Source: Kineococcus aurantiacus
GTDB lineage: Bacteria > Actinomycetota > Actinomycetes > Actinomycetales > Kineococcaceae
Assembly: GCF_013409345.1 (NCBI RefSeq)
Contig: NZ_JACCBB010000001.1
Coordinates: forward strand, 496,001 to 560,000
Direction of reading: 5' to 3'
Length of the DNA: 64,000 nucleotides
The position numbers were made by a program, and so were the translations under genes. Each line of letters starts with the position of its first letter. Position 1 is the stretch's first letter. Below are positions 1 to 13,702 of the stretch, piece after piece. The notes under the pieces were generated by a model, which saw only the letters and a list, made by a program, of their open reading frames with translations, did not search any database and was not told the DNA's origin.

Positions 1-37
1 GCTTCGGCCACGACCAGGGGTAGTCCGCGTACACAGA

Positions 38-94: not shown

Positions 95-309
95 ACATCG
101 ACTGCACGTCGAAGTCATCGCCACCCTAAGGCGCGAGGCCAGCGGGGTCCGAGCAGGAACGCGGCGCGCGAGGCCCGGTTCCGAGCTTCCTCGGCAATGG
201 TGCGATGACCCGACGGGACCGTGCGCGAGGCCGGCGAGCAGCGACAGCCCGAGAGGGGCTGATCGAGCGCCGGTGTCTCCCCTTAACGGCATCCGTCCCG
301 GGAGACGTC

Positions 310-552
310 ATGACCTTCACGCGATCCCGCGTGCATACGTTCAATGGCCCCAACCTCCGCAAGCTCCGGACCGACAGCGCGAAGTCTCGCGAACTGCTCG
401 CGATTGAACTCGGCTGCACGGCTGAGAGCGTCAAGGCGTGGGAGAACGGCAGCAGAGAACCCACCCTCGCGACGGCAGCATCGCTCGCGATCATCCTCCG
501 CGTCTCGCTCGACGAACTCGTGCGTCGGGAGGCGAGCACCGATGCCGCGTAA
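310..552 (+). CDS. XRE-family helix-turn-helix regulator
   Basis: An 80-residue protein that is essentially one Cro/C1-type helix-turn-helix domain. The frame shows the usual pattern: a first helix with LRKLR, the turn-recognition stretch LAIELGCTAESVKAWENG, then the PTLATAASLAIILRVSLDEL tail typical of XRE domains. I chose the ATG at 310 because a GGGAGA-like ribosome site precedes it and the 35 residues encoded upstream look non-protein. The next ORF begins inside its last codons. In prophages and satellites such a protein commonly controls the lysogenic switch or replication genes; here that is inferred from position at the head of the cluster. It lacks any second domain, so ligand sensing is not visible. 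Confidence 0.75.
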   Translation: MTFTRSRVHTFNGPNLRKLRTDSAKSRELLAIELGCTAESVKAWENGSREPTLATAASLAIILRVSLDELVRREASTDAA

Positions 553-1300: not shown

Positions 1301-1611
1301 CCGGCCGCTCCCTGCGCCACACCGCGCAGCCAGCCGCCCTCGACGGCCGGGCCGGGCTGCTGGTGCTGCCCGACGTCCCCGACGACGCCCCCGACCTTGT
1401 GCGCGAAGGCGTCGCCCGCCGGCGCATCACGGCCAGCACCGGCCGCTGCCCCTGCGGCGCCGCGCTCGTCATACCCAACCGCGCCGCCCGCCGCGCAGCC
1501 GCCCGCAGCGGCCGCGACGTTACGCACGTGCGCGTCGAGCACGAACCCGGCTGCCCGGCCACCGAGGACGTCCTGCGCCCGGCGCTGCGGCAGTGGAGGG
1601 CGGAGCAGTGA
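1297..1611 (+). CDS. Hypothetical protein with CxC and distal Cys
   Basis: A 104-residue ORF beginning at a GTG that overlaps the preceding stop by the GTGA arrangement. The middle holds GRCPCGAALV and, about 35 residues on, EPGCPATED, so a small metal-binding site with three cysteines and a histidine is possible. The stretch between is basic. The following helicase gene again starts by GTGA overlap. Position directly before a replication ATPase suggests a role in element DNA metabolism or regulation, but this is inference from context only. Confidence 0.5.
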   Translation: MTGRSLRHTAQPAALDGRAGLLVLPDVPDDAPDLVREGVARRRITASTGRCPCGAALVIPNRAARRAAARSGRDVTHVRVEHEPGCPATEDVLRPALRQWRAEQ

Positions 1612-2852
1612 TCGAGGCGTACGACGGCGACGTGCCCGCCCCGTGGGACGAACCCGGCCAGCACACCCCCGTCGAGCTGATCCCGCCGACATGGGCGCCG
1701 ATCGACCTGCGCGACGTCCTCGAGGGCACCCACGTCCCGGAGGAGCCGGCGCTGTTCGTCCGCACCGACGGACATGGGCTGCTGTACCCGGGGCGGGTGC
1801 ACAGCTTCCACGGGGAGCCGGAGAGCGGGAAGTCCCTCGTGGCGCAGGCCGAAGCCGCCCGCGTCCTGACCGACGGCGGGCGGGTGCTGTTCGTCGACTT
1901 CGAGTCCGATCGGGGGACGGTCGCGCTGCGGCTGCTGGCACTGGGCGCATCCGTCGAGGCCATCCTCGAGCGCTTCCACTACGTGCGCCCGGAGGGTCCG
2001 CCGTCCCTGCCGCACGAGCAGCAGGCGTGGACGGAGCTGCTGGCCCAGCGCTTCGACCTGGCCGTGCTCGACGGGGTCACCGAAGCGCTGTCGCTGGCCG
2101 GCATCGCGTCGAAGGACAACGACGCGGTGACGCTGTGGGTGCGCCGGGTGCCGCGGGCGATCGCGCACCGCACCGGCGCCGCCGTCGTCGTGATCGACCA
2201 CGTCGTCAAGGACAGCGACAGCCGCGGCCGCTACGCGATCGGCGGGCAGGCGAAGCTGGCCGCCCTCGACGGCGCCGCCTACGTCGTCGACGTCGTCCAG
2301 CCGCTGGGCCGCGGACTGCGCGGCGTGCTGTCGCTGCGCGTGGCGAAAGACCGCCCCGGCGCCGTACGTGGCTTCGCCGGCAAGCCGCGCCGCGACCGCA
2401 CTGCTGAAGCCGCCCGCGTCACAGTGGACAGCACCGGACCCGACGACCGGATCGTCGTCACCGTCGACCCGCCTGTAGCCGCGGCGCCGGCAGACGACGA
2501 CCTCGGCGGCAGCAGGCCGTGGCGTCCGACCGCCCTCATGGAGAAGGTCTCTCGGCTGCTCGAGGACTCCCGCGACCCAGTGGTCGGCAGCACTGTCACC
2601 GCGGCGGTGCGCGGCAAGCGGACAGCTGTCAGCGCTGCCCTCGACCTGCTGGTCGCAGAGCAATACGTCGCCCGGGTCATGCACGGCCGAGCCCAGCGCC
2701 ACCACTGCCTGCGCCCGTACCGACAGACCGATGACCCCCTGTCCGACCTCTACCAGCCGCGGGACGCATCCGACCTCGCGCAGCAGCCCCCGAGGGCCCT
2801 GGACGTCATGCGTCCTGCGTCCCGGGTTAACACCCGGGTCCGGGACGCATGA
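1608..2852 (+). CDS. RepA-like hexameric helicase/AAA ATPase
   Basis: A 414-residue protein of the RecA/DnaB-like P-loop class that includes plasmid RepA helicases. Walker A is GEPESGKS (about residues 69-76); a Walker B-like strand VLFVDFES follows near residue 97 and a second acidic strand LAVLDGV lies near 145. A conserved-looking IDHVVKD and GQAKLAALDGAAYVVDV segment fits the sensor region of RepA-type ATPases. The last quarter (residues about 300-380) looks like a winged-helix segment (LLEDSRDPVVGSTVTAAVRG). I start at GTG 1608 because it overlaps the previous stop as GTGA; ATG 1593 is an alternative. The gene lies directly before and partly inside an iteron-like repeat array, so a role in replication or mobilisation of this element is likely. 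No primase or relaxase motif is seen. Confidence 0.75.
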   Translation: MIEAYDGDVPAPWDEPGQHTPVELIPPTWAPIDLRDVLEGTHVPEEPALFVRTDGHGLLYPGRVHSFHGEPESGKSLVAQAEAARVLTDGGRVLFVDFESDRGTVALRLLALGASVEAILERFHYVRPEGPPSLPHEQQAWTELLAQRFDLAVLDGVTEALSLAGIASKDNDAVTLWVRRVPRAIAHRTGAAVVVIDHVVKDSDSRGRYAIGGQAKLAALDGAAYVVDVVQPLGRGLRGVLSLRVAKDRPGAVRGFAGKPRRDRTAEAARVTVDSTGPDDRIVVTVDPPVAAAPADDDLGGSRPWRPTALMEKVSRLLEDSRDPVVGSTVTAAVRGKRTAVSAALDLLVAEQYVARVMHGRAQRHHCLRPYRQTDDPLSDLYQPRDASDLAQQPPRALDVMRPASRVNTRVRDA

Positions 2853-2985: not shown

Positions 2986-3462
2986 TCAAAACTTCAACCC
3001 GTCTGGGGGACGAGGGTCCAAAGGACGAGGCGGTGGCGGTAGCGGCCGCTGCCACGAACGCATCTCGGCTTCGTGGCTCTCCCGCCACGTCACACTGATC
3101 GGCTCTCGACACGACAGACCGCGTCGTGCGGAAAAAATCATCGCGCCACCGGCATCCAGTTGCAGATGCTTCACCGGCTCCTTCATCGAGCCGCTTGTCA
3201 CGGTTACATCGAACAGCGGATACGCGCCCTCATTGATGAGGTCGTACGTGTCCCCTGATCGATGCTGCATTCGCCATGGCGGTCGGACTGCCATCCTCTG
3301 GGCAGCCTGCTCTGCTAGCTCTAGCTGGCGTTCCGCCGCCTGCACCGACCGCTGCGCCGCATCTGCAGAACGACGTGCGGCCATGGACGAGCGCATCGCG
3401 AAGATCAACGCCGCTACCGCCACTAACGCTGACACCCCAGAGGGCACCACAGCCCATTCCAT
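2986..3462 (-). CDS. Membrane-anchored hypothetical protein (moron-like)
   Basis: A 158-residue minus-strand protein inside an otherwise plus-strand cluster. Residues about 3-21 form one hydrophobic segment (VVPSGVSALVAVAALIFAM), followed by an Ala/Arg/Gln-rich coiled-coil region (residues 25-55) and then a beta-rich domain with YDLINEGAYPLFDVTV, the type of sequence seen in small immunoglobulin-like or surface-sensing domains. I take the Met at 3462; an in-frame start further upstream at 3558 only adds a low-complexity leader. Its opposite orientation between replication and packaging-type genes is the usual place of a lysogenic accessory gene ('moron'). Superinfection exclusion or envelope sensing are possible but unproven. 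Confidence 0.55.
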   Translation of the reverse strand: MEWAVVPSGVSALVAVAALIFAMRSSMAARRSADAAQRSVQAAERQLELAEQAAQRMAVRPPWRMQHRSGDTYDLINEGAYPLFDVTVTSGSMKEPVKHLQLDAGGAMIFSARRGLSCREPISVTWRESHEAEMRSWQRPLPPPPRPLDPRPPDGLKF

Positions 3463-3675
3463 GACCCTGAGCGTAAGCAAGACCCACGGGTGGGGGATCA
3501 AGATTGGGCATCTGGGGACAGCGACCGTGAGGGTTGGTCCTCTCGGGGCTGCAGCCACCCCCCACCCCCCAGGCCGAGAAGTCCGGCAGGGGCCTGTGGG
3601 GACGTCCAGGCGCCGTCTGGGCGGGGTGTGGTCGTTCGGGGGTCCGCTGCGGCGGGCGGCCGAGGGCGGTGCGCG

Positions 3676-4128
3676 GTGAGCCGGGCCCGCAGTCAGCGGT
3701 GGCAGGAGCCGTCCAGCGCCGGGCCGGGTGGGGTCGATCGGCCGCTGCGGGTAGGGGAGGTGCCTATCCCGGCAGGTGGTCGTCCGGGGCCGGCGCCGGC
3801 ACCGCCTGCAGAGCTGTCGACCGCGGGGAAGGCCGCGTGGCGCCGGCTGTGGCGCAGCCCCGTCGCGGTTCTGTGGGACGAGCGGTCGGACGCCGGGCCG
3901 ATCGTGCGGCTGTGCGAGCTGATGACGCGTGAGGACCTGCCGGGGACGAAGGCGCAGGCGCTGATGGTGGCGATCGAGGACCGGCTGGGGCTGTCCCCGA
4001 AGTCGCGGGCGCAGATGCGGCTGGTGCTGGTGCAGCAGTGGCCGCCGGCGGGGTCGGGGGCGGACGACATGGGGGAGGTCCTGCTGTCGATCGTGGGCGG
4101 AGACGACCGGGTGGAGGAGGCGCGGTGA
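3676..4128 (+). CDS. Small-terminase-like phage protein
   Basis: A 150-residue protein with a Pro/Gly-rich basic N-terminus (residues 1-45), a helical middle (LSTAGKAAWRRLW, then DAGPIVRLCELMTR) and the segment LGLSPKSRAQMRLVL near residue 115. The order 'helix with aromatic pair - LCELM-type helix - LGLSPKSR(x)LR' matches what I know of phage small terminase subunits of actinophages; this is family recognition by eye. The small subunit binds packaging sites and loads the large subunit. No large subunit gene follows. GTG 3676 overlaps a TGA at 3677-3679 and is the first sensible start. An unrelated DNA-binding protein cannot be excluded. Confidence 0.6.
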   Translation: MSRARSQRWQEPSSAGPGGVDRPLRVGEVPIPAGGRPGPAPAPPAELSTAGKAAWRRLWRSPVAVLWDERSDAGPIVRLCELMTREDLPGTKAQALMVAIEDRLGLSPKSRAQMRLVLVQQWPPAGSGADDMGEVLLSIVGGDDRVEEAR

Positions 4129-4481
4129 TCAGTTACGGCTGTACGCCGGCGGAGGTCGAGGCGTTGCGCCGGGAGGCGGCGCGCAGTGCGGCGCAGGTCG
4201 CGCGGAATCGGGCGGCGCGGGAGGCGGCCGCGCTGCGGCAGGTCGTCGAGCGGGTCATGGAAGGGCTGCGGGAAGCGCAGCGACGAGCAGAGGAGGAACC
4301 GCAGGTGAGCGACGAGGAACAGGCCGCGCAGGCGGCCGCAGAGCTGGACGCGGCGGTGCAGCAGGCGCTGATGCAGATGGGCGGGACGCCGGCACGGGTA
4401 CAACCCGCGCTGGGCCCGGACGGGCAGCCGCTGCCCGACAACGTCGTGGCCGCGCTGGCGCAGATGGGCGGTGGACGGTGA
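4125..4481 (+). CDS. Coiled-coil-rich hypothetical protein
   Basis: A 118-residue protein starting at a GTG that overlaps the preceding stop as GTGA. Residues about 8-75 are strongly helical and charged (LRREAARSAAQVARNRAARE, then EEEPQVSDEEQAAQA), followed by a Pro/Gly C-terminus with LGPDGQPLPDNV. The composition recalls small phage structural or scaffold-like proteins, but no family is recognised. It sits between the terminase-like gene and a 301-residue unknown protein in a tight run of overlapping genes, so the three are probably co-translated. Function not assigned. Confidence 0.5.
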   Translation: MISYGCTPAEVEALRREAARSAAQVARNRAAREAAALRQVVERVMEGLREAQRRAEEEPQVSDEEQAAQAAAELDAAVQQALMQMGGTPARVQPALGPDGQPLPDNVVAALAQMGGGR

Positions 4482-5383
4482 GCCTCACGACCACCACCAC
4501 GACCCCGTCGACGAGCACGACGGGCCCGGCCACGATGTCGCTGCGGGAGCTGCTGAGCGCAGCGCGGGTGCCGCACACCCACCAGCCGCGCCGGGAGGTG
4601 CGCGAGATTGTGACCGCGATCGAGGCCGGGATGCTCGAGGCGCCCGTCGAGGTCGCGGTCGTCCTGGCCGCCTACCGCGCTGCGGTGCAGTCGCTGGGCA
4701 CCGCGAAGGCGGCGCAGATCGAGGAGCGGCTGCCGGACCTGACCGCGCAGGCCGCACAGGCTCATGCCGGGGGGCAGGCGCTGACCGCGGCGCAGATCCA
4801 GGCCATGCGCCAGGCCGCCAACGACGACGCGGCGCAGGCCCGGGTGCTGCAGGTGCTGTCGGAGCAGGTGCTGAGCACAGCCGGGCAGCTGGGCATGGCC
4901 GTCGGGTACGCCGACGAGGAGCTGGTCGAGCAGTTGCGCGCCGGTGCGTGGGAGCCGCTGCGGGTCCGCTGGCAGCGGATCGTCGAACAGCTCGAGGACG
5001 CAGACCCGCGCGACCCGGCCGAGTTCGTCGGTATCGGGCCCGCTGCTGACCGTGCCCGCGCTGCCCGTGAGGAAGCGGTACAGCTGGCGCGGGAGGTCGC
5101 GGCGGTGCGCCGGCTGCACCGGACGCTGCTGCAGCTGAACGCCGACGCCGGGTCGCTGGGCGACCTCGACGAGCGGGGGCTGGTGCACCGTCGCGACGGT
5201 CGCGGCCGAGTGGGCGGGGACGCGCTGAACCAGCTCGTCGAGGCCGGGGTCGGGTGGCTGCCGACATGGGCGGAGCTGCACGAGCAGGCGCGGGCCCCGC
5301 GGGTGGTGGCCAACCCCAGCGCGCAGGAGCGGGCGCGGGAGGCGATCGCGGCCGCCGGGCGCCCGGCGATGGCGGCGTGGTGA
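4478..5383 (+). CDS. Hypothetical helical protein of the phage-like cluster
   Basis: A 301-residue, almost entirely helical protein with a Thr-rich N-terminus, then MSLRELLSAARVPH and long Ala/Gln/Glu-rich helices (residues 40-130 and 180-230). A C-terminal segment GWLPTWAELHEQARAP ends the ordered part. It starts at GTG 4478, overlapping the previous stop. No terminase, portal, protease or capsid motif is visible. Length, charge and helical content would suit a scaffold, head-size or packaging-redirecting protein, but this is speculation from context. It is followed by about 240 bp without a clear gene before the decoration protein. Confidence 0.55.
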   Translation: MSLTTTTTTPSTSTTGPATMSLRELLSAARVPHTHQPRREVREIVTAIEAGMLEAPVEVAVVLAAYRAAVQSLGTAKAAQIEERLPDLTAQAAQAHAGGQALTAAQIQAMRQAANDDAAQARVLQVLSEQVLSTAGQLGMAVGYADEELVEQLRAGAWEPLRVRWQRIVEQLEDADPRDPAEFVGIGPAADRARAAREEAVQLAREVAAVRRLHRTLLQLNADAGSLGDLDERGLVHRRDGRGRVGGDALNQLVEAGVGWLPTWAELHEQARAPRVVANPSAQERAREAIAAAGRPAMAAW

Positions 5384-5624
5384 GGCCGGCCAGCCCGTGA
5401 GGCGGTGAGCCCGCCCCCTTGAACCCCCGTGCGCGGCGCAGCCGCCACCGACCCGAGTCGCTGTCGCGAGGTCGTCCCCGGGCTGGTGGCGCCGGGGAGC
5501 GCCCCCGGCGCCGCGAACGGGTCGGTGGTGGGTGCTGGCGGTGGATCGCGAGGAGAGCCGCCGGCACTGCCGCATCTGCATGACCCCACGACCACGAGCA
5601 CCACGACGAGCACCAGGAGAAGCG

Positions 5625-6038
5625 ATGACCGACATGAGCCTCGAGCGAATCGACTACAGCGCGGATGATCGGCGGTGGATTCGGGATCACAGCGGGTTCC
5701 GCAACACCATCGGCGTGACCCTCGACCCGGCGCTGTTCGGCGCGCTGCGCTTCCCCGGCGGCGTAGTGCCGTCGGGCACGGTGCTGGCGCGCACCGACGC
5801 CGGGCTATGGGGACCGTACGACCCGGCCGCCACCGACGGCCGCGCGACCGCGGAGCGCGGCCGCGTGGGGCACCTGCTTGAGGGTCGGACCCTTCGCCCC
5901 GGTCGGAGGGTGTCGACGGCGCTGCTCGACGCTGGTGGGGTTGAAGAGCGGCTCCTGCCGACGTCCCCGATTGGTGGGGCGGTCGGGATCCTCGACGCCG
6001 CCATCCGCGAGGTGCTTAAGAGTATCCGGTACGCCTAG
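5625..6038 (+). CDS. Phage head decoration protein (lambda gpD-like)
   Basis: A 137-residue protein with the features of the lambda-D type head decoration family: a segment VVPSGTVLARTD, then a Gly/Tyr stretch GLWGPYDPAATDGRATA and a GHLLEG strand, then a C-terminal helix. Such proteins trim the surface of phage capsids and stabilise packed heads. The ATG at 5625 has an AGGAGA ribosome site 6 bases upstream, better than the upstream alternatives. No major capsid gene precedes it, which is odd, because decoration and capsid genes are normally adjacent. It is the last gene of the phage-like run and two hairpins follow it. Family assignment is by eye and reasonably firm. Confidence 0.65.
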   Translation: MTDMSLERIDYSADDRRWIRDHSGFRNTIGVTLDPALFGALRFPGGVVPSGTVLARTDAGLWGPYDPAATDGRATAERGRVGHLLEGRTLRPGRRVSTALLDAGGVEERLLPTSPIGGAVGILDAAIREVLKSIRYA

Positions 6039-6050
6039 CGAGCGGCATAC

Positions 6051-6104
6051 GTCGCCCATTGGGCGACCACCTCGGCACCAACGGTGCGGCTACGGCCGCC
6101 GCAC
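6051..6104. terminator. Paired hairpins between convergent genes
   Basis: Two hairpins lie between the convergent decoration and nuclease genes: GTCGCCC-ATT-GGGCGAC at 6051-6067 and GTGCGGC with GCCGCAC at 6084-6104 (7-bp arms each). They probably end transcription from both sides. No clear T-run is present, as is common in GC-rich actinobacteria. Confidence 0.5.
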
Positions 6105-6116
6105 GCACCCTTCGCT

Positions 6117-7601
6117 CTAGGAGGTGAGAAACTCGAAGCGCTGGTGCAGGAGGCCACCAATCTGTGCACATCCGCCCTCTTGGGCTTCCTGCACCAGCTG
6201 CGCCAGATCGTCATCGTCCAAAGGAGTAATGAATCCTCGGTCGTCCTTAGCGGTGTCCCGGCAGCTCTCCAAGAATGCGTCTTTACCCTCGACCTTTCGG
6301 TAGACCAGGAGGCCGTAGCGTCCCCTAGAGGGCGAGAACCTGCCGGCGAGCTGGTCGTACTCCTTGTTGCCGAGAGGCTTACTGTAGTTCTTGCACTCCA
6401 CGACGACGTTGGCGGCCGGATAGTGCGTTGCGAGCCAGTAGAAGAAGGTGTCTTTGGCGGCGACGTTCGTGTAAGAGATGTCGATGATTTTCCGGCCGTC
6501 ATGGAGGCGGCGCTGGCGCACTGGGTTCACCAGATCCGGATAGAACAGCGCCGCGAGCAGTGCCTCCACGGCCCGCTCATATGCAGTTGCGTCAGCCTGC
6601 CCGGGGGCTAGATCGGTCACCGCCTTGAGAAGATCATTAAGGTGCAACCAGGGCGCATCAACGCCTGTCGCGTCTGCAATCGCTTCGTGACCGGTCGGGC
6701 GCGGGGGCGTCTCTGCCTTATCCGACTTGAATTGAAGCAGTAGATCCGGATTTTGCTGTGTCGCATGTAGGTTGATGCGTTTCTCGACGCCTGGATTGTG
6801 CCTTCCCGCCCCAAACTGTTGGCGATACTTATTCTCAACATCCCCCTTCTTGACTCTTGGCTCCCCCTTATGTGGGCCTTTTTTGAGCAGGTAGACAAGA
6901 GGTGACATCGAGTCCAATTCCTGCTGCTTGAAATACTCGAGCACGTAGTGCCGATAATACTCGCCAGGATTGTAATAAAGATTTCTTCGAACGATGCTCT
7001 TCGGTACCAGGAGAAGAGGACCCTGTTTCGTAAGTGGCAGGGTAGCTGTGGCCTGTTCCCATGCGTTGACCCGAGCGTTCCAGAAGGGGCCGATTGCGAG
7101 CCCGTCCTGCGTTGGAATTTCGTAGAACTCAGCCGTGGCCTGAGTATATTCGACCAGCTGTTCCCTGATGATGTTCGTTGTGACATCTGAGATTCGGTCC
7201 TCGCGGACCCCTTCCACAAGTAGGGCCGTATCTTCCAAGTCCGTGACGAAACCCGATGCCACTGCGTCACTGTTGGCGAGTTCATCGTAGAACTTTTCCG
7301 CCAGGCCGTCGCCAACCCCACTGCCCTGGGAAACGCTCGAGTACCCGAGATGGGTCGCATTCACTTCTCCGAGCTCACGCAGGAGAGCCATCGCGCCGAA
7401 TGAGTCTTTTGCGCGAATCTTATCCAGAACAGCCTGGAAGAACGATTGAATCGACGATATGCATGAATTGGCCCACGGGGATTGAAGAGTTGCCAAAGCC
7501 GAGGGATCAATGAACAGTGGGGTATCGTGCTCAACATCAACGTCGATGAAGTCGAACGATCCTTGTGAACCAGTCAGTCCAAACAGCTCCGAGACGCGCA
7601 C
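6117..7601 (-). CDS. PD-(D/E)XK nuclease-like protein, putative defence
   Basis: A 494-residue protein with no recognised N-terminal family. Near residues 369-404 it has the pattern of a PD-(D/E)XK nuclease core: a strand GRKIIDISY with Asp374 and, after a helix (FFYWLATHYP), a strand VVVECKNY giving Glu402-x-Lys404, as in Mrr-type restriction and other DNA-cleaving enzymes. The first 350 residues may be a sensor or DNA-binding part (FIDVDVEHDTPLFIDPSAL at the N-terminus, a Lys/Arg-rich middle). The gene has visibly lower GC content than the core genome and is divergent from a MazG-HNH pair. The start is GTG 7601. A role in anti-phage defence is inferred from fold and neighbours; substrate unknown. 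Confidence 0.6.
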   Translation of the reverse strand: MRVSELFGLTGSQGSFDFIDVDVEHDTPLFIDPSALATLQSPWANSCISSIQSFFQAVLDKIRAKDSFGAMALLRELGEVNATHLGYSSVSQGSGVGDGLAEKFYDELANSDAVASGFVTDLEDTALLVEGVREDRISDVTTNIIREQLVEYTQATAEFYEIPTQDGLAIGPFWNARVNAWEQATATLPLTKQGPLLLVPKSIVRRNLYYNPGEYYRHYVLEYFKQQELDSMSPLVYLLKKGPHKGEPRVKKGDVENKYRQQFGAGRHNPGVEKRINLHATQQNPDLLLQFKSDKAETPPRPTGHEAIADATGVDAPWLHLNDLLKAVTDLAPGQADATAYERAVEALLAALFYPDLVNPVRQRRLHDGRKIIDISYTNVAAKDTFFYWLATHYPAANVVVECKNYSKPLGNKEYDQLAGRFSPSRGRYGLLVYRKVEGKDAFLESCRDTAKDDRGFITPLDDDDLAQLVQEAQEGGCAQIGGLLHQRFEFLTS

Positions 7602-7622
7602 ACATACCCCTCAGCTCATCGA

Positions 7623-7647
7623 GTGAGTAGGGAGGATACCTCCTCAC
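7623..7647. promoter_or_regulatory. Palindrome in divergent intergenic region
   Basis: Between the divergent nuclease and MazG-type genes lies GGAGG-ATA-CCTCC (7631-7643), framed by GTGAG (7623-7627) and CTCAC (7643-7647). It may be an operator shared by both promoters. A hairpin in a leader transcript is the alternative. Confidence 0.35.
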
Positions 7648-7709
7648 CGCAACGAGCCATGTCGCGACACGCTCGAGCTTGCGGTAGCGACAAGTAAGTC
7701 GATGGCACC

Positions 7710-8081
7710 ATGTTCTCCGTGACTCACGATGAACTCCAGCGTGACCTGGAGAGCTTTGCGCAGGCGAGAGACTGGGAACAGTTTCACACTCCCAAGAACT
7801 TGGTCATGGCACTCGCTGGCGAGGTCGGCGAGTTGGCCGACCTGTTTCAGTGGCTCACGCCGGAGGAGAGCCTGACTGAGTTTTCGGTCGACGCTGAGCG
7901 TCGGAAGGACCTGGAGCAGGAAATGGCCGATGTCTTTGGCTACCTGCTCCGCCTCGCCGATGTGCTCAATGTCGACCTAGAGGAGGCGCTGCGCACGAAG
8001 ATGAGAGTAAACGCGACGCGCTACCCAGTTGAATCGAGCCGAGGCCGAGCGACGAAGTACAACAAATTGGAGAATCAGTGA
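7710..8081 (+). CDS. MazG-type nucleotide pyrophosphohydrolase
   Basis: A 123-residue all-alpha NTP pyrophosphohydrolase of the MazG/dCTPase superfamily. The metal-binding motifs are clear: EVGEL (Glu38, Glu41) in the first helix pair and EQEMADVFGYLLRLAD (Glu71, Asp74) in the second. The length matches single-domain members that cleave (d)NTPs to NMP and pyrophosphate. The gene overlaps the next by 4 nt (GTGA), so both are one operon. In a mobile-element context such enzymes may deplete or sanitise nucleotides during phage infection; this role is inference. Substrate cannot be read from the sequence. Confidence 0.8.
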   Translation: MFSVTHDELQRDLESFAQARDWEQFHTPKNLVMALAGEVGELADLFQWLTPEESLTEFSVDAERRKDLEQEMADVFGYLLRLADVLNVDLEEALRTKMRVNATRYPVESSRGRATKYNKLENQ

Positions 8082-9055
8082 GACGGATCGTTCAGCAGCC
8101 AGCGGGCAGCCCTGAATCCCACAAGCACTATAAGGACACGGTCGAGTCTCCCGTATCCTTCGCGGCGCATGCCTCGCTTTTGACCTCTACCGATCTTCAG
8201 ATCCTCAGTCAGCTTCACCCGACCGGGTCAGCTGCGATGTGGGGGGCGAAACCAGGCAAGGGCGAAGTAAACGTCAAGCAGTACGCCAATATGTCGCCTG
8301 GCGACTTCGTCGTCTTTGCTTCCAACAAGCGCATCTTCCGTGGTGGAACTGTGACGCACAAGTTCCGGAATGCAGCCCTAGCCGAGTCTCTATGGCAGCG
8401 GGACGAGGAAGGAGAAACGTGGGAGCTGATGTTCGCCCTCGACGAATTAAGAGAGCTCGATCTGACCTACGCCGAGTACAACACTGTGGTGGGGTACGGG
8501 GCGAACGCTATCGTTCAAGGCTTCCGGGTTCTGGGCGAGGAGAAGAGTGCCGCCCTCTTCGAATACCTCTCACTGGACAGCGATACCTACCCCGCCGTCG
8601 GAACTGCCTCCGAGGTAGCTGCGAAGATCGCTGGCCTAGGAGGGGAAACCGAAAAGCTGGTGACGACGGTGCAACGATTGGAACAGGGGTTTCTGAGGCA
8701 GTCACTTCTACCAGGACTAGAGGGAGACTGCGCTCTCTGTGGTCGCACCTTTCCCAGGAAACTTTTGATCGCTGCTCATATCAAGAAGCGATCGGAATGT
8801 TCCCCACAGGAGCGTCTCGACGTCCCACACGTGGCGATGCTCGCATGCAAGTTCGGCTGCGACAGCCTCTATGAGGAAGGCTACCTCGGCGTTGACGCCA
8901 CTGGCGGGGTGCTCGTCAGCAAATTCGTGGAAGACTCAACCGCAATCAGCGACTACTTGTCGGCGCTCGCGGGGCGGCAATGCGCTGCGCACACACCCGC
9001 CTCAGCTGACTACTTTTCGTGGCACCGTAAATACACCTTCAAGGCCACTGGATAA
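8078..9055 (+). CDS. PUA/EVE-like domain fused to HNH-type nuclease
   Basis: A 325-residue two-part protein. Residues about 20-170 look like a PUA/EVE-type fold: a MSPGDFVVFASNKRIF strand pair, then TWELMFALDELRELD and an NTVVGYGANAIVQGFRVL stretch, resembling domains that read modified bases. Residues 216-290 form an HNH-like zinc nuclease: CALC (Cys218, Cys221), LLIAAHIKKRSE with His234, and CDSLYEEGYLGVD with Cys261. The combination is that of a type IV-like restriction enzyme. GTG 8078 overlaps the MazG stop as GTGA, indicating co-translation. A strong hairpin follows the stop. Modified-DNA specificity is inferred, and the EVE assignment is weaker than the HNH assignment. Confidence 0.65.
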   Translation: MRRIVQQPAGSPESHKHYKDTVESPVSFAAHASLLTSTDLQILSQLHPTGSAAMWGAKPGKGEVNVKQYANMSPGDFVVFASNKRIFRGGTVTHKFRNAALAESLWQRDEEGETWELMFALDELRELDLTYAEYNTVVGYGANAIVQGFRVLGEEKSAALFEYLSLDSDTYPAVGTASEVAAKIAGLGGETEKLVTTVQRLEQGFLRQSLLPGLEGDCALCGRTFPRKLLIAAHIKKRSECSPQERLDVPHVAMLACKFGCDSLYEEGYLGVDATGGVLVSKFVEDSTAISDYLSALAGRQCAAHTPASADYFSWHRKYTFKATG

Positions 9056-9064
9056 TTTCGGCGC

Positions 9065-9101
9065 CGGCGGCCGCAGAAACTTCCGGGCTCTGCGGCCGCC
9101 G
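9065..9101 (+). terminator. Strong hairpin terminator after HNH gene
   Basis: A 13-bp perfect stem (9065-9077 with 9089-9101) around an 11-nt loop begins 10 bp after the HNH stop codon. It is the likely end of the MazG-HNH transcript. Confidence 0.7.
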
Positions 9102-9258
9102 TGCCTCACTGGACGTCGATGCTGACTAGAGTGCTCTCGGTCCCGTCGTTGGTGGTGACGCCCGTGTAGCTCATTCAGATCGGCGACCGTGGCTACTCTC
9201 CGCGTCAACGCTTCAGCTCGAGGTCCATCGACTTTCGGACAACCTGATTGAGACGTTG

Positions 9259-9282
9259 GAAAGCCCGCCATGACGGGCTTTC
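9259..9282. terminator. Hairpin, possible terminator
   Basis: GAAAGCCCG (9259-9267) pairs with CGGGCTTTC (9274-9282) around a 6-nt loop. It lies just past the stop of the small minus-strand membrane ORF. From 9102 to 9258 I see no gene. Confidence 0.5.
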
Positions 9283-9292
9283 AAGCGTTCCT

Positions 9293-9460
9293 TTACTCAC
9301 CCCTTTTGGGTGTGCTGCACCGGCCCATTGACACGACTGCCGCCGTCGCTACTGCCCAGGCGAGCAGGACGATGAAACCGAGGATGACCGCCCGCCAGAA
9401 CACGCGCTTCCGGGCTGATCGACGTGTCTAAGCACGGACGGTCGGGCGTCGCTTGCTCAC
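9293..9460 (-). pseudogene. Small single-TM protein with in-frame TAG
   Basis: Read from GTG 9460, the frame gives a basic 10-residue leader, an in-frame TAG at 9428-9430, and then ARKRVFWRAVILGFIVLLAW with a hydrophobic helix of about 20 residues and a short basic tail ending at TAA 9293. Without the TAG this would be a 55-residue single-span membrane protein. A GTG at 9403 could still yield a 36-residue version starting at VFWRAV. So this is either a decayed gene or a shorter protein with a misleading upstream frame. No function can be assigned. Bases 9461-9674 show no other gene. Confidence 0.4.
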
Positions 9461-9674
9461 TCATTGGGTCCGTCCCGCAAGTCGCGATGAGCGGGTCGAC
9501 CTTTTGTTCGACCCCGAACCCTCGGCGGGTTAGCTAGAAGTTCCCGAACGACCTGCCCGGCGGTGGGTCATAACAGTCAGCAACGGAGCACCGCGCACGC
9601 CAGAGCGCCAAGCAGCCACGGCCTGCGTCGTTGACTCTCGGTCGGCGCCCCGTGCATAGCTCAAGGTACGCGGT

Positions 9675-10100
9675 TCAGGCGCCACCAATCTGGGCCGTCA
9701 CAACGCCGACGAAGATTTCGCGCGCAGTGCCGCCAACCTGCTCGGCCATGCGCTGCCAGCGGGTCTTCTCCTCGGGGTCGCTCGCCGTGTCGGCGCGCGC
9801 GTGCAGCTCGCGGACGAGCGCATCGACGACGGAGTCGGGGCTCGGCCATGCGCCGGCGGCGCGAAGCCCGTCAGGCGTGACCTCAGAGATGCGGATCGGG
9901 TACGGCAGCTCGCCGACGGGGATTCCGCGGATTAGACCGTCACGAGCTAGGTTGCGCAGTGCCGCCTTCGCGCTGTCCAAGGGGATGCCCAGCGCGTCGG
10001 CGATCGGTTCAGGGCCGCTGACGTCGTAGGCATCGATTGGGTCGAGGCGTTGGGCAAGCCACTGCAGCACGGGCAGGTCGCGTTCGGTCCAAGAAGTCAC
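9675..10100 (-). CDS. Winged-helix-type hypothetical protein
   Basis: A 141-residue protein from GTG 10100, which I prefer to the upstream ATG at 10247 because the 49 added residues look untranslated. It begins VTSWTERDLPVLQWLAQRL and continues with a helix-turn-helix-like section (PIADALGIPLDSAKAALRNL, then ARDGLIRG) typical of a winged-helix fold, followed by a helical C-terminal part (SVVDALVRELHARAD). Proteins of this pattern are frequent in actinobacterial genomes next to accessory DNA (general impression). It may be a DNA-binding regulator. No partner is obvious; the next gene upstream on the same strand is 159 bp away. Confidence 0.6.
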   Translation of the reverse strand: MTSWTERDLPVLQWLAQRLDPIDAYDVSGPEPIADALGIPLDSAKAALRNLARDGLIRGIPVGELPYPIRISEVTPDGLRAAGAWPSPDSVVDALVRELHARADTASDPEEKTRWQRMAEQVGGTAREIFVGVVTAQIGGA

Positions 10101-10259
10101 CCGTCGATCATCGAGGCTGAGTAGCGCCGCCGCCGGGACGTCGGCACCCTTCCACCCGTTGTGTCGGAAGTTCGTAGTCTGGTTAGTGCAGTGGTTTGTC
10201 GAACGTTGGAGGGTGGCGAAGATGCGCAGATGGCCAACGAGGGCCACAGCATTCGCTGG

Positions 10260-10562
10260 TTAAGCCTCCTCAACTGTCGTCGAGGCGCCATCCCCTTTAC
10301 CCGACCAAGGCATGACCCGGTTCCATCCCTCGCGATTGAGGACGCCGTCGAGGTCAGTCAGCGACGCGAATGGCCACCGGCCGACGTCGTGACCTGCCTC
10401 GAGCAACTGCAGCGCCTCCACGGGGTCCAGGTCGTCAAGCGGCAGTGTCGAGTACGTTGCACCGGTCGACGGAATCCTGAGTACGAGCAACCCATCGATG
10501 TAGGTAGCGGTCAGCTGAAGCGATCCGATCATGCGTTGACCCAAATGGCTGTCACTGCGCAC
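10260..10562 (-). CDS. Hypothetical protein at island edge
   Basis: Up to 100 residues from GTG 10562, or 90 from ATG 10532. The body is a beta-rich sequence (MIGSLQLTATYIDGLLVLRI, then TYSTLPLDDLDPVEALQLLE) with a Trp-containing C-terminus. No family is recognised. If GTG 10562 is used it overlaps the end of the SAF-domain gene by 11 nt. The gene sits exactly where the SAF gene appears to be cut, so it probably belongs to the inserted DNA. Confidence 0.5.
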   Translation of the reverse strand: MRSDSHLGQRMIGSLQLTATYIDGLLVLRIPSTGATYSTLPLDDLDPVEALQLLEAGHDVGRWPFASLTDLDGVLNREGWNRVMPWSGKGDGASTTVEEA

Positions 10563-10929
10563 CCATGCGGTTCACGAGGGTGTCGGCGGGGATGCGGGTC
10601 GTGGCGTACGTCCCGACGAAGTTCGCCAGGGCGCCGGCCGGGACGGTCGCCGCCCCGTCGGCCGCGACGCGGGCGGTGCCGAGGTCGTCGGCGGTGAGGA
10701 GCTCACCGGGGGCGATGTCGTGCCGGGCGACCAGGACGTCGACGCGGTCCCCGCTGCGGTGCACCACGAGGGCGCTGCCGAGGGCACCGCCGACGACGAG
10801 GACGAGGCCGAACGCGATGAGCGCGGGACGTCGTTCGCGGACCGGGCCGGGCAGGCGGGTGCCGGACGCGCCGGCGGTCGCGGCGTCGGCTCCCCCGGGG
10901 CGGTTCTTCGTCGGGACGGCGGTGGGCAT
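10552..10929 (-). CDS. SAF-domain membrane protein, probably 3'-truncated
   Basis: A 125-residue protein with a Pro/Arg-rich cytoplasmic start, one membrane segment (residues about 31-52, LIAFGLVLVVGGALGSALVV) and a SAF domain (VDVLVARHDIAPGELLTADDL onward) of the kind found in CpaB-like Flp-pilus assembly and related proteins. The reading frame stops right after the SAF core (TLVNRMGAQ); relatives I know continue for about 80-100 more residues. I chose ATG 10929 for the start. The abrupt end, the overlap with an unrelated hypothetical gene and the change in sequence character downstream suggest the 3' part was lost to an insertion or deletion at about 10,555. Confidence 0.6.
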   Translation of the reverse strand: MPTAVPTKNRPGGADAATAGASGTRLPGPVRERRPALIAFGLVLVVGGALGSALVVHRSGDRVDVLVARHDIAPGELLTADDLGTARVAADGAATVPAGALANFVGTYATTRIPADTLVNRMGAQ

Positions 10930-11057
10930 GGCGACGACGGTGCCAGCCGCGGGACCGGGCCCCGGTGACGCACGGGCACCGGTTGGGCCGTCCGGGGGCG
11001 GCCCGTCACCCGCTTCGCGCAACCCCCGGCGACGCTGCGTGCTCGGATCGGGTGAGT

Positions 11058-11077
11058 CCGGCCGGGACCCCGGCCGG
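11058..11077 (-). terminator. Hairpin after A-PCP-TE gene
   Basis: CCGGCCGGG (11058-11066) pairs with CCCGGCCGG (11069-11077) across 2 nt, 16 bp past the stop of the adenylation-thioesterase gene on the minus strand. Confidence 0.5.
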
Positions 11078-11092
11078 GCCCACCCGGGACCG

Positions 11093-13702
11093 TCAGCGGT
11101 CGGCGAGCTCCCCGTCGAGGGCGGGCCCGGTGAGGTCGACGACGTCCGGGCGCAGCCACCGGGAGAGCAGCTCGGCCGGACGGTCGACGCGGGGGTCGCG
11201 CAGGATGGACATGTGCTCGCCGGGGACCTCGACGACGTGGTGCTCACCGCTGAGGTGCGGTCCCCACTGCCGCCGGGCCCCGGCGTCGACGTCGTCGGCC
11301 GCCACGAGCACCAGGGTCCGCCCCGGGTAAGGGGCGGTGGTGTAGCGGCGCTGCAGGAAGTTCCCCTGGCGGAAGAAGCGCACGTAGTGACCCAGGCCCG
11401 CGTGGGCCTTGATGCCCGTCAGCGCCAGGGACAGCCCCTCCTTGAGCCGGGCGAGGGCGCCCGCCTGCGGCGGGAGGGGCATGAGGGCGGGGTCGGGCGG
11501 GAAGGAGTCGACCACGGCGAGCAGCTCGACCTCCTGCCCGGCGCGGCGCAGCTGGTGGGCCATCTCCAGGGCGATGAGCCCGCCGAGGGAGTGCCCGGCG
11601 ACCCGGTACGGGCCCGTCGGCTGCTGCTCGCGGACGGTCGCCACGTTGCGGCGGGCGATGCGCTCCACCGACCAGTCCGGCAGCGCCTTGTTCTCCAGGC
11701 CGTTGGCCTGCAGGCCGAGCACCGGGATCCCCGGCGCGATGCGCTGGGCGAGGGTGCGCAGGGCCAGGGCGGCGCTGCCGGCACCGGCGACGAGGAACAG
11801 CGGACGTTCCCCGCCCTCGGGACGCAGGGGCACCAGCGTGGGCCGGGTGCTGCGGTTCGTCGAGCGCACCGCCACCGCGAACGAGGCCACCGTGGGCGCC
11901 TCGGCCAGCCGTGAGGTGCCGAGGTTCGCCACGCCCGGCACGCCGAGGGCCTCGATGCGGCTGACGAGCGCCTCGGCCGCCAGCGAGTCCCCGCCGAGCT
12001 CGAAGAAGTCGTCGTGGATCGAGAGGTCCTCGAGCTCGAGCACGGCGCAGAACTGCTCGTAGACGATCTCCTCCCAGCTGGAGCGGGGGATCTCGAAGGG
12101 GGCGCTGCTGCGCGCCGGCTCGGGCAGGGCGGACCGGTCGAGCTTGCCCCGCTCGGTGCGGGGCAGCGCGTCGAGGAAGACCACGTGCTCCGGGACCATG
12201 TGCGAGGGCAGGTTCTCGCGGACCACGGCGCGGATCGCCGAGGCCTGCGGGCGGGGTCCGTCGGGCACGACGTAGGCGACGAGCGCCGTCCGCCCGGTCC
12301 GCGGGTTGGGCCGGCCGACGACGAGCGCCTCGCGCACGTCCGGCTGGGCGAACAGCAGCGCGTCGACCTCCCCGGGCTCGACGAGCAGCCCGCGGATCTT
12401 GACGCTGTGGTCGCTGCGGCCCAGCAGCCGCAAGCAGCCGTCGGGGCCCAGGGTGCCGACGTCGGACGTGCGGAAGGTGCGCGAGCCGTCGGGGTTGTCG
12501 GAGAACACCTCCGCCGTCTTCCCCGGGTTCCTCCAGTACCGGCCGCCGAGCCAGCGGGAGGTGAGCACGACGCGGCCGGTGCCCTCGTCGGCGAGGGTGC
12601 CGTCCTCGCGCTCGACCTGCAGGCGCGCGCCGGGGACGGCCCAGCCCACGGGCGTGGCGCCCTCGGGGGCCTCGTCGTCGCCGGTGATGGGGTACTCGGT
12701 CATGAGCCACGTCTCGGTGGAGCCGTAGCGGTTGCGGACCACGCACTGCGGGCCGACGGCGCGGCGCACGGCGGCGAGCTCGGCGCCGTGGACGGTCTCC
12801 CCGGCCATCGTGACCGTCTTCAGGCCCGGCAGGCGGCCGGCGGGACCCAGGGAGGCGATGACCCCGCGCAGGATCGCGGGCGAGGCGAGCAGGACGTCGG
12901 CGCCGACCCGGGCGAGGAACTGCGGCAGCTCGGTGACGGGCCGGCGGCGGGGGTCGAACAGCTCCTGCCGGGCCCCGGCGAGCAGGCAGCCCAGGGTCGG
13001 GGTGACACCGGCGCTGAAGGCCATGGGCAGCAGGTGGGCGACGACGCTGCCGGCGGGGTAGGCGCCGGTGCCCTCGGAGCTGACCCAGGTGTCGTGCAGG
13101 ATCGAGCGGTGGTCGCACGCCACGCCCTTGGGGGCGCCGGTGGACCCGGAGGTGTAGACGATGACGGCGACGTCGTCGGGGGCGGCGGGCGTGCCCAGCA
13201 GCGCGGCGGCGGCCTCGACGTGGTCGGGGCGGCGGCGGGTGGCGTCCTGGTCGGGGTCGACGACGGTCCCGGCGACCTGCGCGGCCGTCTCGCGGCGCTC
13301 GGCGTCGGAGACCACGAGGGTGGCCCCGGCCGCCTCGACGTAGTGCCGCAGCCGGGGCGCGGGCGTCGTGGGGTCCAGGACGACGACGGGGTGGCCGGCG
13401 GCGACGACGCCGACCACGGCCGCGACCGCGCCCGCGTCGTGACCGCGCAGGACGGCCACGGGGGCGCTCTGCGGCGCGGTCCCGGTCCCGGCGTGGTGGG
13501 CGGTGACGGCGTCGCGCACGAGCGCCGCGCGGCGCAGCAGGTCGGCGCCGGTGAGCCGCGTGGTGGCGTCGGCCACCAGGACGTGCGCGGCGCGGGCGAG
13601 CGCGACGTCGACGATGCGCGGGATCAGCTGCCCCTGCGCGTGTTCCTCGGAGAACGTCGTGAACCCGTCGTCCACGGTTGCCGTTCCGGTGTTGTCCCCC
13701 AC
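11093..13702 (-). CDS. A-PCP-TE tridomain synthetase (NRPS-like, no C domain)
   Basis: An 869-residue enzyme with adenylation domain (about 20-525), carrier protein (540-615) and thioesterase (630-860). Adenylation motifs are intact: YTSGSTGAPKG at 183-193, NRYGSTE at 324-330, RTSDVG at 411-416 and the A10 lysine in RTERGK (Lys520). The carrier has FFELGGDSL with Ser573; the thioesterase has GHSLGG with Ser705 and a C-terminal GEHMSI histidine. There is no condensation domain. At the position of the usual amino-group-binding Asp the sequence reads MAFSAGV (229-233 FSAGV), so Ser replaces Asp, hinting at a substrate other than an alpha-amino acid. A-T-TE enzymes of known function dimerise arylpyruvates; that link is inference. 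No tailoring genes lie nearby. Confidence 0.85.
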   Translation of the reverse strand: MGDNTGTATVDDGFTTFSEEHAQGQLIPRIVDVALARAAHVLVADATTRLTGADLLRRAALVRDAVTAHHAGTGTAPQSAPVAVLRGHDAGAVAAVVGVVAAGHPVVVLDPTTPAPRLRHYVEAAGATLVVSDAERRETAAQVAGTVVDPDQDATRRRPDHVEAAAALLGTPAAPDDVAVIVYTSGSTGAPKGVACDHRSILHDTWVSSEGTGAYPAGSVVAHLLPMAFSAGVTPTLGCLLAGARQELFDPRRRPVTELPQFLARVGADVLLASPAILRGVIASLGPAGRLPGLKTVTMAGETVHGAELAAVRRAVGPQCVVRNRYGSTETWLMTEYPITGDDEAPEGATPVGWAVPGARLQVEREDGTLADEGTGRVVLTSRWLGGRYWRNPGKTAEVFSDNPDGSRTFRTSDVGTLGPDGCLRLLGRSDHSVKIRGLLVEPGEVDALLFAQPDVREALVVGRPNPRTGRTALVAYVVPDGPRPQASAIRAVVRENLPSHMVPEHVVFLDALPRTERGKLDRSALPEPARSSAPFEIPRSSWEEIVYEQFCAVLELEDLSIHDDFFELGGDSLAAEALVSRIEALGVPGVANLGTSRLAEAPTVASFAVAVRSTNRSTRPTLVPLRPEGGERPLFLVAGAGSAALALRTLAQRIAPGIPVLGLQANGLENKALPDWSVERIARRNVATVREQQPTGPYRVAGHSLGGLIALEMAHQLRRAGQEVELLAVVDSFPPDPALMPLPPQAGALARLKEGLSLALTGIKAHAGLGHYVRFFRQGNFLQRRYTTAPYPGRTLVLVAADDVDAGARRQWGPHLSGEHHVVEVPGEHMSILRDPRVDRPAELLSRWLRPDVVDLTGPALDGELADR

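What the first reader, a model, noticed from the sequence alone, without database searches (positions are those of the whole stretch)
6117..9055. Candidate undescribed three-gene defence cassette: PD-(D/E)XK nuclease, MazG pyrophosphohydrolase and PUA/EVE-HNH protein
The three genes sit in an accessory island with lower GC than the surroundings. MazG and EVE-HNH overlap by 4 nt; the nuclease is divergent with a palindrome between. A base-modification reader fused to HNH plus a nucleotide-cleaving enzyme plus a second nuclease of unknown family is not a standard restriction system that I recognise. The PD-(D/E)XK protein's first 350 residues match nothing known to me.
Basis: partly seen in the sequence, partly recalled or inferred. 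Interest (0 to 1): 0.8.

Follow-up and report, generated by a model that had tools for sequence, protein, structure and literature searches.

The report
Restriction enzyme paired with nucleotide-cleaning enzyme
A 12-kb virus-like mobile element in an actinomycete chromosome carries a predicted DNA-cutting enzyme that looks for chemically modified DNA, coupled to an enzyme of a family that destroys modified DNA building blocks; the pair recurs in prophages and plasmids and may be a defence with its own built-in self-protection, while the neighbouring third gene looks like an occasional companion.

Summary
The three ORFs are real and at the stated coordinates, but they are not one conserved cassette. 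Two form a recurrent module: a VcaM4I-like EVE/PUA-HNH protein (predicted modification-dependent, type IV restriction enzyme) and a MazG protein closest to the dCTP pyrophosphatase DCTPP1/RS21-C6. MazG lies beside full-length EVE-HNH genes in 27 of 31 viral loci, but in only 1 of 7 sampled actinomycete genome loci. The PD-(D/E)XK-like protein is not of unknown family: it matches the PADLOC candidate PDC-M36A (2.8e-42). It is a facultative neighbour: besides the window, only one Microbacterium has all three; 0 of 13 other class-wide loci do. A distant homologue sits in the psu-int slot of a P4-like satellite, a known defence hotspot. The cassette is a low-GC insert in an 11,988-bp serine-integrase element, satellite-like, that split a SAF-domain-like gene. 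Best reading: EVE-HNH cuts modified invading DNA and MazG removes modified dNTPs so that host DNA does not become a target. Enzyme identities are well supported; the coupling mechanism is inference and the modified base unknown. Nothing was shown experimentally.

The parts
7710..8081 (+). MazG-like all-alpha NTP pyrophosphohydrolase, DCTPP1/RS21-C6-like, 123 aa
   Evidence: Pfam MazG-like 1.6e-10; PDB phmmer to RS21-C6 3.4e-27; 7 of 8 DCTPP1 pocket residues listed in PMC4491611 conserved (W22 E38 E41 W48 E71 D74 Y78), H38 is L13
8078..9055 (+). EVE/PUA-HNH predicted modification-dependent restriction endonuclease, 325 aa
   Evidence: PADLOC HNH model 3.9e-12, VcaM4I by profile 4.6e-14, Foldseek 1.0e-10; H234, D262, E266 align with VcaM4I H224, D250, D254; C218 C221 C257 C261 invariant in 13 pairs
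6117..7601 (-). PDC-M36A-like protein: conserved N-terminal domain plus C-terminal PD-(D/E)XK-like region (D374, E402-x-K404), 494 aa; facultative neighbour
   Evidence: PADLOC PDC-M36A 2.8e-42 and 2.4e-21; homologues in 37 plasmid records, 8 of them viewed; Pfam Mrr_cat only 0.088
9065..9101 (+). 13-nt perfect inverted repeat with 11-nt loop just after the EVE-HNH gene, possible terminator
   Evidence: I6; not reported by the terminator scan
9253..9288 (+). 18-nt inverted repeat (83% complementary), possible terminator
   Evidence: I2; not reported by the terminator scan
1..23 (+). 3' end of the element's large serine integrase (gene at genome 494617-496023, mostly left of the window)
   Evidence: L123:10617-12023, PHROG integrase 6.7e-90, Pfam Resolvase 2.7e-31 and Recombinase 3.9e-08
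205..552 (+). HTH regulator of the element
   Evidence: Pfam HTH_3 1.1e-08
1593..2852 (+). AAA_25 ATPase resembling phage primase C-termini
   Evidence: Pfam 1.6e-13, phrog_695 2.6e-34
3490..4128 (+). terminase-small-subunit-like protein
   Evidence: phrog_226 (named minor tail protein) 3.8e-08, phrog_83 terminase small subunit 2.4e-06; Pfam Terminase_7 6.6e-05, below its cut-off
5532..6038 (+). head decoration protein
   Evidence: phrog_3583 4.2e-17
9675..10247 (-). unknown gene of the element's right end
   Evidence: no PHROG or NCBIfam match, only weak Pfam hits below cut-off
10260..10562 (-). unknown gene of the element's right end
   Evidence: no family match
10568..10574 (+). attR core CGGTTCA; the attL copy is at genome 494580, 1420 bases left of the window
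   Evidence: ORF intact across this point in 7 of 7 matched same-genus loci
10568..11247 (-). ORF holding the 5' part of the SAF-domain-like gene split by the element
   Evidence: the domain name is recalled

Best explanation
The core is a two-gene, modification-dependent restriction module carried by an integrated satellite-like mobile element. The EVE/PUA domain of the 325-aa protein flips and reads a modified base in incoming DNA and the HNH domain cuts that DNA (predicted from homology). The coupled MazG protein is a dNTP pyrophosphohydrolase of the DCTPP1 type. It hydrolyses the modified dNTP corresponding to the base that the EVE domain reads, most likely a C5-modified dCTP. This keeps phage-made or salvaged modified nucleotides out of host DNA, so the nuclease finds no target in self, and it also drains a phage's own modified-dNTP pool. 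The PDC-M36A-like protein is an independent second defence gene in the same cargo slot. Shown by computation: identities, recurrent adjacency, mobile context. Inferred: base specificity, MazG substrate, self-protection role, all anti-phage activity.
For: EVE-HNH identity; catalytic H234/D262/E266 and pocket W106 (VcaM4I W82) invariant in 13 of 13 pairs examined. MazG identity. DCTPP1 kcat/Km is 255 per min per mM for 5-methyl-dCTP and 145 for dCTP (PMC4491611, passages). Recurrent linkage: 27 of 31 full-length viral loci, 2 of 2 genome-contig loci, 4 of 5 fetched plasmid loci (two of the four have a broken MazG frame), while 0 of 6 genome contigs relatives that share only the HNH half have it. 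By cluster, 7 of 9 at 50% identity and 13 of 20 at 70% include a MazG-linked member (the single-member cluster L051 is a gene broken into two frames). The two protein distance matrices correlate (r 0.847, 0 of 5000 permutations, 13 pairs). The logic recurs with other parts: a MrcB_N protein with a weak HNH match (0.0017, below cut-off) overlapping a MazG gene in Priestia, with a MutT gene nearby; MutT homologues next to SauUSI (PMC7641849, figure legend), and MutT-type enzymes active on 5-methyl-dCTP (Orf135, MutT2; PMC10742078, passages).
Against: Among 7 full-length class-genome loci only 1 has MazG, so EVE-HNH can stand alone. DCTPP1 His38, which contacts cytosine in a docking model, is L/I/V in all 13 pairs. 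Two of three VcaM4I pocket residues differ (P24 kept in 1 of 13, mostly V; Y130 kept in 0 of 13, mostly Q). C5-methyltransferase matches (PF00145) coexist with the pair in the genome of L008 (partial match) and in the prophage of L023 (5 of 13 carriers' genomes or records above cut-off), which speaks against plain 5mC in every context as target. Their absence from the host genome means little, since 51 of 99 relatives have one. MazG relatives are common (94 of 296 class genomes); of the 30 best MazG loci examined with 1.5-kb flanks, only the window's own has the HNH partner, while 6 have a helicase.
Confidence: 0.45

Rival explanations
1. MazG is a second effector: it depletes dCTP or other dNTPs during infection, stalling phage replication, as dCTP deaminases and dGTPases do (recalled), while EVE-HNH cuts DNA.
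For: MazG is listed as a predicted, unvalidated defence domain in DefensePredictor (PMC13092281, passages); DCTPP1 also hydrolyses plain dCTP; MazG also pairs with SLFN-g3 helicases.
Against: No separate sensor or switch domain in the 123-aa MazG; MazG relatives are common in genomes of the class; the host has another MazG gene elsewhere. The pocket residues do not separate this reading from the sanitiser reading.
Confidence: 0.25
2. All three genes form one system in which the PDC-M36A-like nuclease is an essential component.
For: Adjacent in the window and in Microbacterium L015; shared low GC.
Against: In the loci with the pair, the nuclease was found only in the window's own and in L015/L088; it occurs without the pair in 13 of 13 other class loci and 5 of 5 order loci; it is a PADLOC candidate with its own partner M36B in two plasmids, and no M36B was found in the window.
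Confidence: 0.07
3. MazG is a passive passenger: an ordinary house-cleaning enzyme that hitch-hikes beside a solitary EVE-HNH enzyme.
For: EVE-HNH has no MazG within 1 kb in 4 of 31 viral and 6 of 7 class full-length loci; MazG is common.
Against: Adjacency with 4- or 8-nt overlaps or short gaps (up to 33 nt) in 17 of the 18 pairs the script could measure, the exception having the reverse gene order; correlated distances; a second reader + MazG architecture in Priestia.
Confidence: 0.15
4. The EVE-HNH protein targets another modification (for example N6-methyladenine or a hypermodified base), and MazG hydrolyses the matching dNTP or something unrelated.
For: After VcaM4I the best Foldseek hits are the T. 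gammatolerans McrB N-terminal domain and mainly YTH domains; a review calls that McrB domain a 6mA binder (PMC12707154, passages), although the PDB title of 6p0g says m5C DNA. Pocket residues differ from VcaM4I; C5-methyltransferases coexist with the pair.
Against: Closest full-length structural match is VcaM4I, which reads 5mC/5hmC; the MazG is dCTPase-like.
Confidence: 0.25

Closest known systems
VcaM4I EVE-HNH modification-dependent restriction endonuclease (PDB 6yex; PMC7897488)
   Same: Domain order, HNH catalytic residues, pocket Trp W82 = W106, full-length structural match.
   Different: Pocket residues P24 and Y130 differ; four invariant cysteines (possible zinc site) of which VcaM4I shows only the first in the alignment; coupled MazG; specificity untested.
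DCTPP1 / RS21-C6 dCTP pyrophosphatase (PDB 2a3q, 6sqw)
   Same: E 3.4e-27 over residues 6-120, metal motif and both pocket tryptophans.
   Different: His38 is replaced; bacterial operon with a nuclease; substrate untested.
PDC-M36 phage-defence candidate (PADLOC-DB)
   Same: The A protein matches at 2.8e-42.
   Different: No M36B partner found in the window; PDC-M36 is itself only a candidate.
Type IV enzymes with a neighbouring MutT (SauUSI loci in PMC7641849)
   Same: Modified-DNA nuclease next to a nucleotide-pool sanitiser.
   Different: Unrelated nuclease and unrelated hydrolase family; a search of that paper's main text found no mention of MazG.
P4-like satellites with the psu-int defence hotspot (PMC9122126)
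   Same: Satellite-like element carrying swappable cargo; a PDC-M36A homologue lies in that slot in L124.
   Different: Serine integrase, actinomycete host, different structural genes.

Membership tests
EVE-HNH modification-dependent restriction endonucleases (VcaM4I type) | N-terminal PUA-superfamily EVE-type domain | tested here: met
   Model pLDDT 86.5, Foldseek VcaM4I 1.0e-10, McrB-N and YTH next; EVE versus YTH subtype not resolved
EVE-HNH modification-dependent restriction endonucleases (VcaM4I type) | HNH catalytic residues H, D and a second acid | tested here: met
   H234, D262, E266, 13 of 13 pairs
EVE-HNH modification-dependent restriction endonucleases (VcaM4I type) | 5mC/5hmC pocket P24, W82, Y130 | tested here: inconclusive
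   W conserved in 13 of 13; P24 in 1 of 13 and Y130 in 0 of 13
EVE-HNH modification-dependent restriction endonucleases (VcaM4I type) | Cleavage only of modified DNA | not testable with these tools
   needs enzymology
EVE-HNH modification-dependent restriction endonucleases (VcaM4I type) | No C5-methyltransferase in the host (expected if plain 5mC is the target) | tested here: inconclusive
   PF00145: 0 in own genome, but 51 of 99 relatives have one and 5 of 13 other carriers' genomes or records have one above cut-off
DCTPP1-type all-alpha NTP pyrophosphatases | ExxE...ExxD metal motif | tested here: met
   E38, E41, E71, D74
DCTPP1-type all-alpha NTP pyrophosphatases | Base pocket His38, Trp47, Trp73, Tyr102 | tested here: inconclusive
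   3 of 4; His38 is L13
DCTPP1-type all-alpha NTP pyrophosphatases | Hydrolysis of dCTP and C5-modified dCTP | not testable with these tools
   needs enzymology
PDC-M36 (PADLOC candidate) | M36A protein | tested here: met
   2.8e-42
PDC-M36 (PADLOC candidate) | M36B partner | tested here: not met
   tblastn of two M36B proteins against the window: one 22-residue match at E 0.51, far from the cassette
PD-(D/E)XK nucleases | D...ExK motif in the C-terminal domain | tested here: inconclusive
   D374, E402, K404 present; D and ExK in L004, L005, L015, and D with ExK-like FK in L007; lost in L124 by the alignment; fold not shown (model pLDDT 49.6)
Phage satellites | Integrase and attachment sites | tested here: met
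   serine integrase, CGGTTCA cores, 7 of 7 matched relative loci uninterrupted
Phage satellites | A few packaging/head genes but no complete virion set | tested here: inconclusive
   terminase-small-like and head decoration found among 10 element proteins tested, no capsid, portal or tail set; not every ORF was tested
Phage satellites | Mobilised by a helper phage | not testable with these tools
   needs induction experiments

The most novel reading that the evidence does not exclude
A 'restrict and sanitise' immune module: the nuclease's self/non-self discrimination is kept not by a protective methyltransferase but by a partner that polices the nucleotide pool, destroying the modified dNTP whose base the nuclease attacks. 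The same logic would have arisen more than once (EVE-HNH + MazG, MrcB_N-HNH + MazG, SauUSI + MutT), so MazG would be a metabolite-level antitoxin and, at once, a weapon against phages that build DNA from modified dNTPs.
Probability: 0.35. Interest if true: 0.85.

Novelty: new variant of a known kind. Interest (0 to 1): 0.55.

Why it matters
Type IV restriction enzymes have no protective methyltransferase (general knowledge), and how a host keeps its own DNA free of the targeted base is rarely asked. A recurrent pairing of modified-DNA nucleases with a dCTPase-like pool cleaner gives a concrete, testable answer and ties nucleotide house-cleaning to phage defence, where MazG domains are so far only predicted to act (PMC13092281, passages). 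It also gives a candidate role to some members of a MazG family found in about a third of the class genomes sampled (94 of 296).

Tried and rejected
Three-gene system: rejected on co-occurrence. Intergenic palindrome as an operator: no better than shuffles. Structure of the PDC-M36A-like protein: a 4-sequence alignment gave pLDDT 49.6, so no fold search was run on it. MutT/Nudix as a stand-in partner where MazG is missing: a Nudix-box regular expression over L008, L015-L055 and L086-L116 hit only L016 and L020, both of which have MazG (broken in L020); the expression also missed the known NUDIX gene of L022, so this negative is weak. Absence of C5-methyltransferase as support for 5mC specificity: dropped after the base rate and the positive carriers. 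More nuclease homologues from viral contigs: three single-protein scans found nothing, a small alignment found two, and a further scan only the same contig as L124. The E. coli collection (near mode) and the phage collection (protein mode) had no match to the L124 homologue. Literature: no paper held names PDC-M36, none joins EVE domain, MazG and HNH, MazG and modification-dependent restriction, nucleotide pyrophosphohydrolase, type IV restriction and defense or DUF2075 and pyrophosphohydrolase. A wider search listed 8 papers; I read passages of three and saw only the listing of the other five. The 2015 paper on nucleotide-centric conflict systems cited by DefensePredictor was not held, so prior description cannot be excluded.

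Rows dropped or weak: the collection scans prefilter on short peptides (those from the HNH half, so not chosen for MazG). The cluster count used the window, the full-length loci (fetched ones), plus L086 and L087; it left out L089, L093, L107 and L108, counted the broken-frame MazG of L018 and L020 as present, and L051, a gene in two frames, forms a cluster of its own. The distance test used 13 of the 15 loci on its list; the script's motif missed MazG in L023 and in 13 members of the L030 group, and its gap figure for L015 is meaningless because the gene order differs. L116 gave no model hit on rescan and is not in the 30 class loci counted. Some fetched regions were cut by contig ends (L212 only 3,080 bases).
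Full report
1. The observation. ORFs 6117-7601 (-), 7710-8081 (+) and 8078-9055 (+) are present as described. They sit in a 57.2% GC stretch between 72.1% (1-6038) and 64.6% (9056-10567), the chromosome beyond being 76.4% (10568-31000). Genes 2 and 3 overlap by 4 nt. The palindrome is not significant (24 of 200 shuffles reach it).

2. The island. A large serine integrase (L123:10617-12023; PHROG 6.7e-90; Pfam) lies just left of the window. The 7-bp sequence CGGTTCA occurs at genome 494580 and at window 10568, 11,988 bp apart. Joining the flanks in a script gives an ORF that reads IPADTLVNRTMFLAGD across the junction, and the corresponding reading is uninterrupted in 7 of 7 matched loci of same-genus genomes. 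Of 10 element proteins tested with PHROGs, five matched: an integrase, an HTH regulator, a primase-like AAA protein, a terminase-small-like protein and a head decoration protein; five had no match. This looks like a phage satellite or a decayed small phage; helper dependence is untested. The three genes are a low-GC insert in this element. The genus is inferred to be Kineococcus: the genome that holds L008 (Kineococcus siccus) and the same-genus genome G002 show the identical PF00145 match at the same contig coordinates. In L008 too, a phrog_226 gene, the family that the window's terminase-small-like protein also matches, lies near the pair.

3. The EVE-HNH protein. Sequence alone matches VcaM4I in the HNH half (4.7e-07); a 21-sequence profile extends the match over 52-325 (4.6e-14). 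The AlphaFold model (pLDDT 86.5, pTM 0.57) has VcaM4I as top Foldseek hit (1.0e-10; global TM only 0.31, rmsd 15.4, probably because the domain arrangement differs), then the McrB N-terminal domain and mainly YTH domains. By the profile alignment the VcaM4I residues H224, D250, D254 (PMC7897488: abstract and sections 18 and 21) correspond to H234, D262, E266, invariant in the 13 pairs examined; the pocket residue W82 corresponds to invariant W106, while P24 is kept in 1 of 13 and Y130 in none. Four cysteines (218, 221, 257, 261) are invariant there too. So it is very probably a PUA-reader-HNH restriction enzyme; the base it reads is open.

4. The MazG protein. Its closest solved relatives are RS21-C6 and DCTPP1 (3.4e-27). 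Of the eight pocket residues named for DCTPP1 from docking (PMC4491611, passages), seven are conserved in the 13 pairs and His38 is not. DCTPP1 prefers 5-methyl-dCTP to dCTP (kcat/Km 255 against 145 per min per mM) and is described as having a possible house-cleaning function (PMC7162842, passages). The host has a second MazG gene elsewhere, overlapping an SLFN-g3 helicase ORF.

5. Are they a module? Viral contigs: 33 loci, 31 full-length, 27 with MazG beside them. Genome contigs: 8 loci, 2 full-length, both with MazG; the 6 that share only the HNH half have none. Plasmids: 25 records, 6 fetched; 5 full-length, 4 with MazG (two broken), and the one partial also with MazG. Class-wide genomes: 32 of 394 with a match, own included; 31 regions fetched, 30 rescored: 7 full-length with 1 MazG (the Microbacterium already counted as L015), 23 partial with 3. 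The link is thus strong on mobile elements and weak in the class sample, many of whose matches are distant. Clustering, to offset one large prophage group, gives 7 of 9 clusters at 50% and 13 of 20 at 70% with a MazG-linked member. Protein distances of the two partners correlate (r 0.847, 0 of 5000 permutations, 13 pairs), as co-inheritance predicts, though shared host phylogeny would do the same. Looking the other way, of the 30 best MazG loci with 1.5-kb flanks only the window's own has the HNH partner and 6 have the helicase.

6. The same logic with other parts. In a Priestia plasmid a MrcB_N gene with a weak HNH match (0.0017, below cut-off) overlaps a MazG gene by 4 nt, followed by a DUF2075 helicase gene and preceded by a MutT gene. 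A Halalkalicoccus plasmid has MazG beside an SLFN-g3 helicase. Other fetched MazG plasmid loci show no such partner in their annotation (L174, L176, L177, L178). Bell and colleagues note MutT homologues next to SauUSI in Streptococcus (PMC7641849, passages), and mycobacterial MutT2 and E. coli Orf135 act on 5-methyl-dCTP (PMC10742078, passages). This suggests, without proving, that modified-DNA nucleases acquire a modified-dNTP hydrolase.

7. The nuclease. It matches PADLOC PDC-M36A, a candidate whose B protein was found beside it in two plasmids and not in the window. Homologues occur in 37 plasmid records, of which I viewed 8, none with an annotated MazG, and in 15 of 394 class genomes, of which only the window's genome and G547 (Microbacterium, L015/L088) have MazG and EVE-HNH next to it; 0 of the 13 others do within about 7 kb or the contig end, and 0 of 5 from the order-wide search. 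A homologue in viral contig L124 lies between Psu-like genes and an integrase, the position described as a defence hotspot in P4-like satellites (PMC9122126, passages). That supports a defence role, but this homologue lacks the D/ExK residues. The model was too poor to use.

8. Mechanism. I commit to: EVE-HNH cuts DNA with a modified base; MazG hydrolyses the matching dNTP and so prevents self-targeting, and may starve phages of it. A direct test of one implication was ambiguous: the host has no C5-methyltransferase match, but 51 of 99 relatives have one, and among 13 other carriers' genomes or records 6 have a match (5 above cut-off), including the genome of L008 (partial match) and the prophage of L023, both with the pair. 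So ordinary 5mC in any context is an unlikely target; 5hmC, a sequence-limited 5mC, or another base remain.

9. Novelty. EVE-HNH enzymes are known, and MazG is listed among predicted but unvalidated defence domains (PMC13092281, passages). I found no paper joining the two, with the caveat that one cited 2015 survey was not held and that supplements and subscription papers were not searched. I rate it a new variant of a known kind.

Noticed in passing
own genome C1 about 2520502-2522569 (L213:1251-3318): A second module: a 106-aa MazG whose gene overlaps an SLFN-g3 (DUF2075) helicase ORF that aligns over its length with the L015 helicase, whose N-terminus is GIY-YIG-like (2.3e-04, just below cut-off). 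Similar pairs in L195, L196, L197, L199; an archaeal plasmid (L173) has MazG beside the same helicase type. Possibly an undescribed defence pair.
   Followed up: partly
window -1420 to 10567 (genome 494580-506567): 11,988-bp serine-integrase element with terminase-small-like and head decoration genes, inserted in a SAF-domain-like gene; a candidate actinomycete phage satellite.
   Followed up: partly
L124:5974-7419: PDC-M36A homologue in the psu-int slot of a P4-like satellite, apparently without the D/ExK residues.
   Followed up: partly
L015:6114-7055: 313-aa gene between the PDC-M36A-like and EVE-HNH genes in Microbacterium, without match in Pfam, PADLOC or PHROGs.
   Followed up: no
window 6090-6101 and 9090-9101: 12-nt GC-rich repeat (92% identical) exactly 3000 nt apart, bracketing the low-GC cassette; may mark cargo exchange or be chance.
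   Followed up: no
L022:4352-8258: Priestia plasmid: MutT, MrcB_N (HNH-like), MazG and DUF2075 helicase genes in one row.
   Followed up: partly
window 11093-13702 (-): Next to the element, an ORF that reads by eye like a stand-alone adenylation-carrier-thioesterase protein (recalled motifs, no family search).
   Followed up: no
L023 (viral contig, handle G560): A prophage with the MazG + EVE-HNH pair also carries a C5-cytosine methyltransferase match.
   Followed up: no
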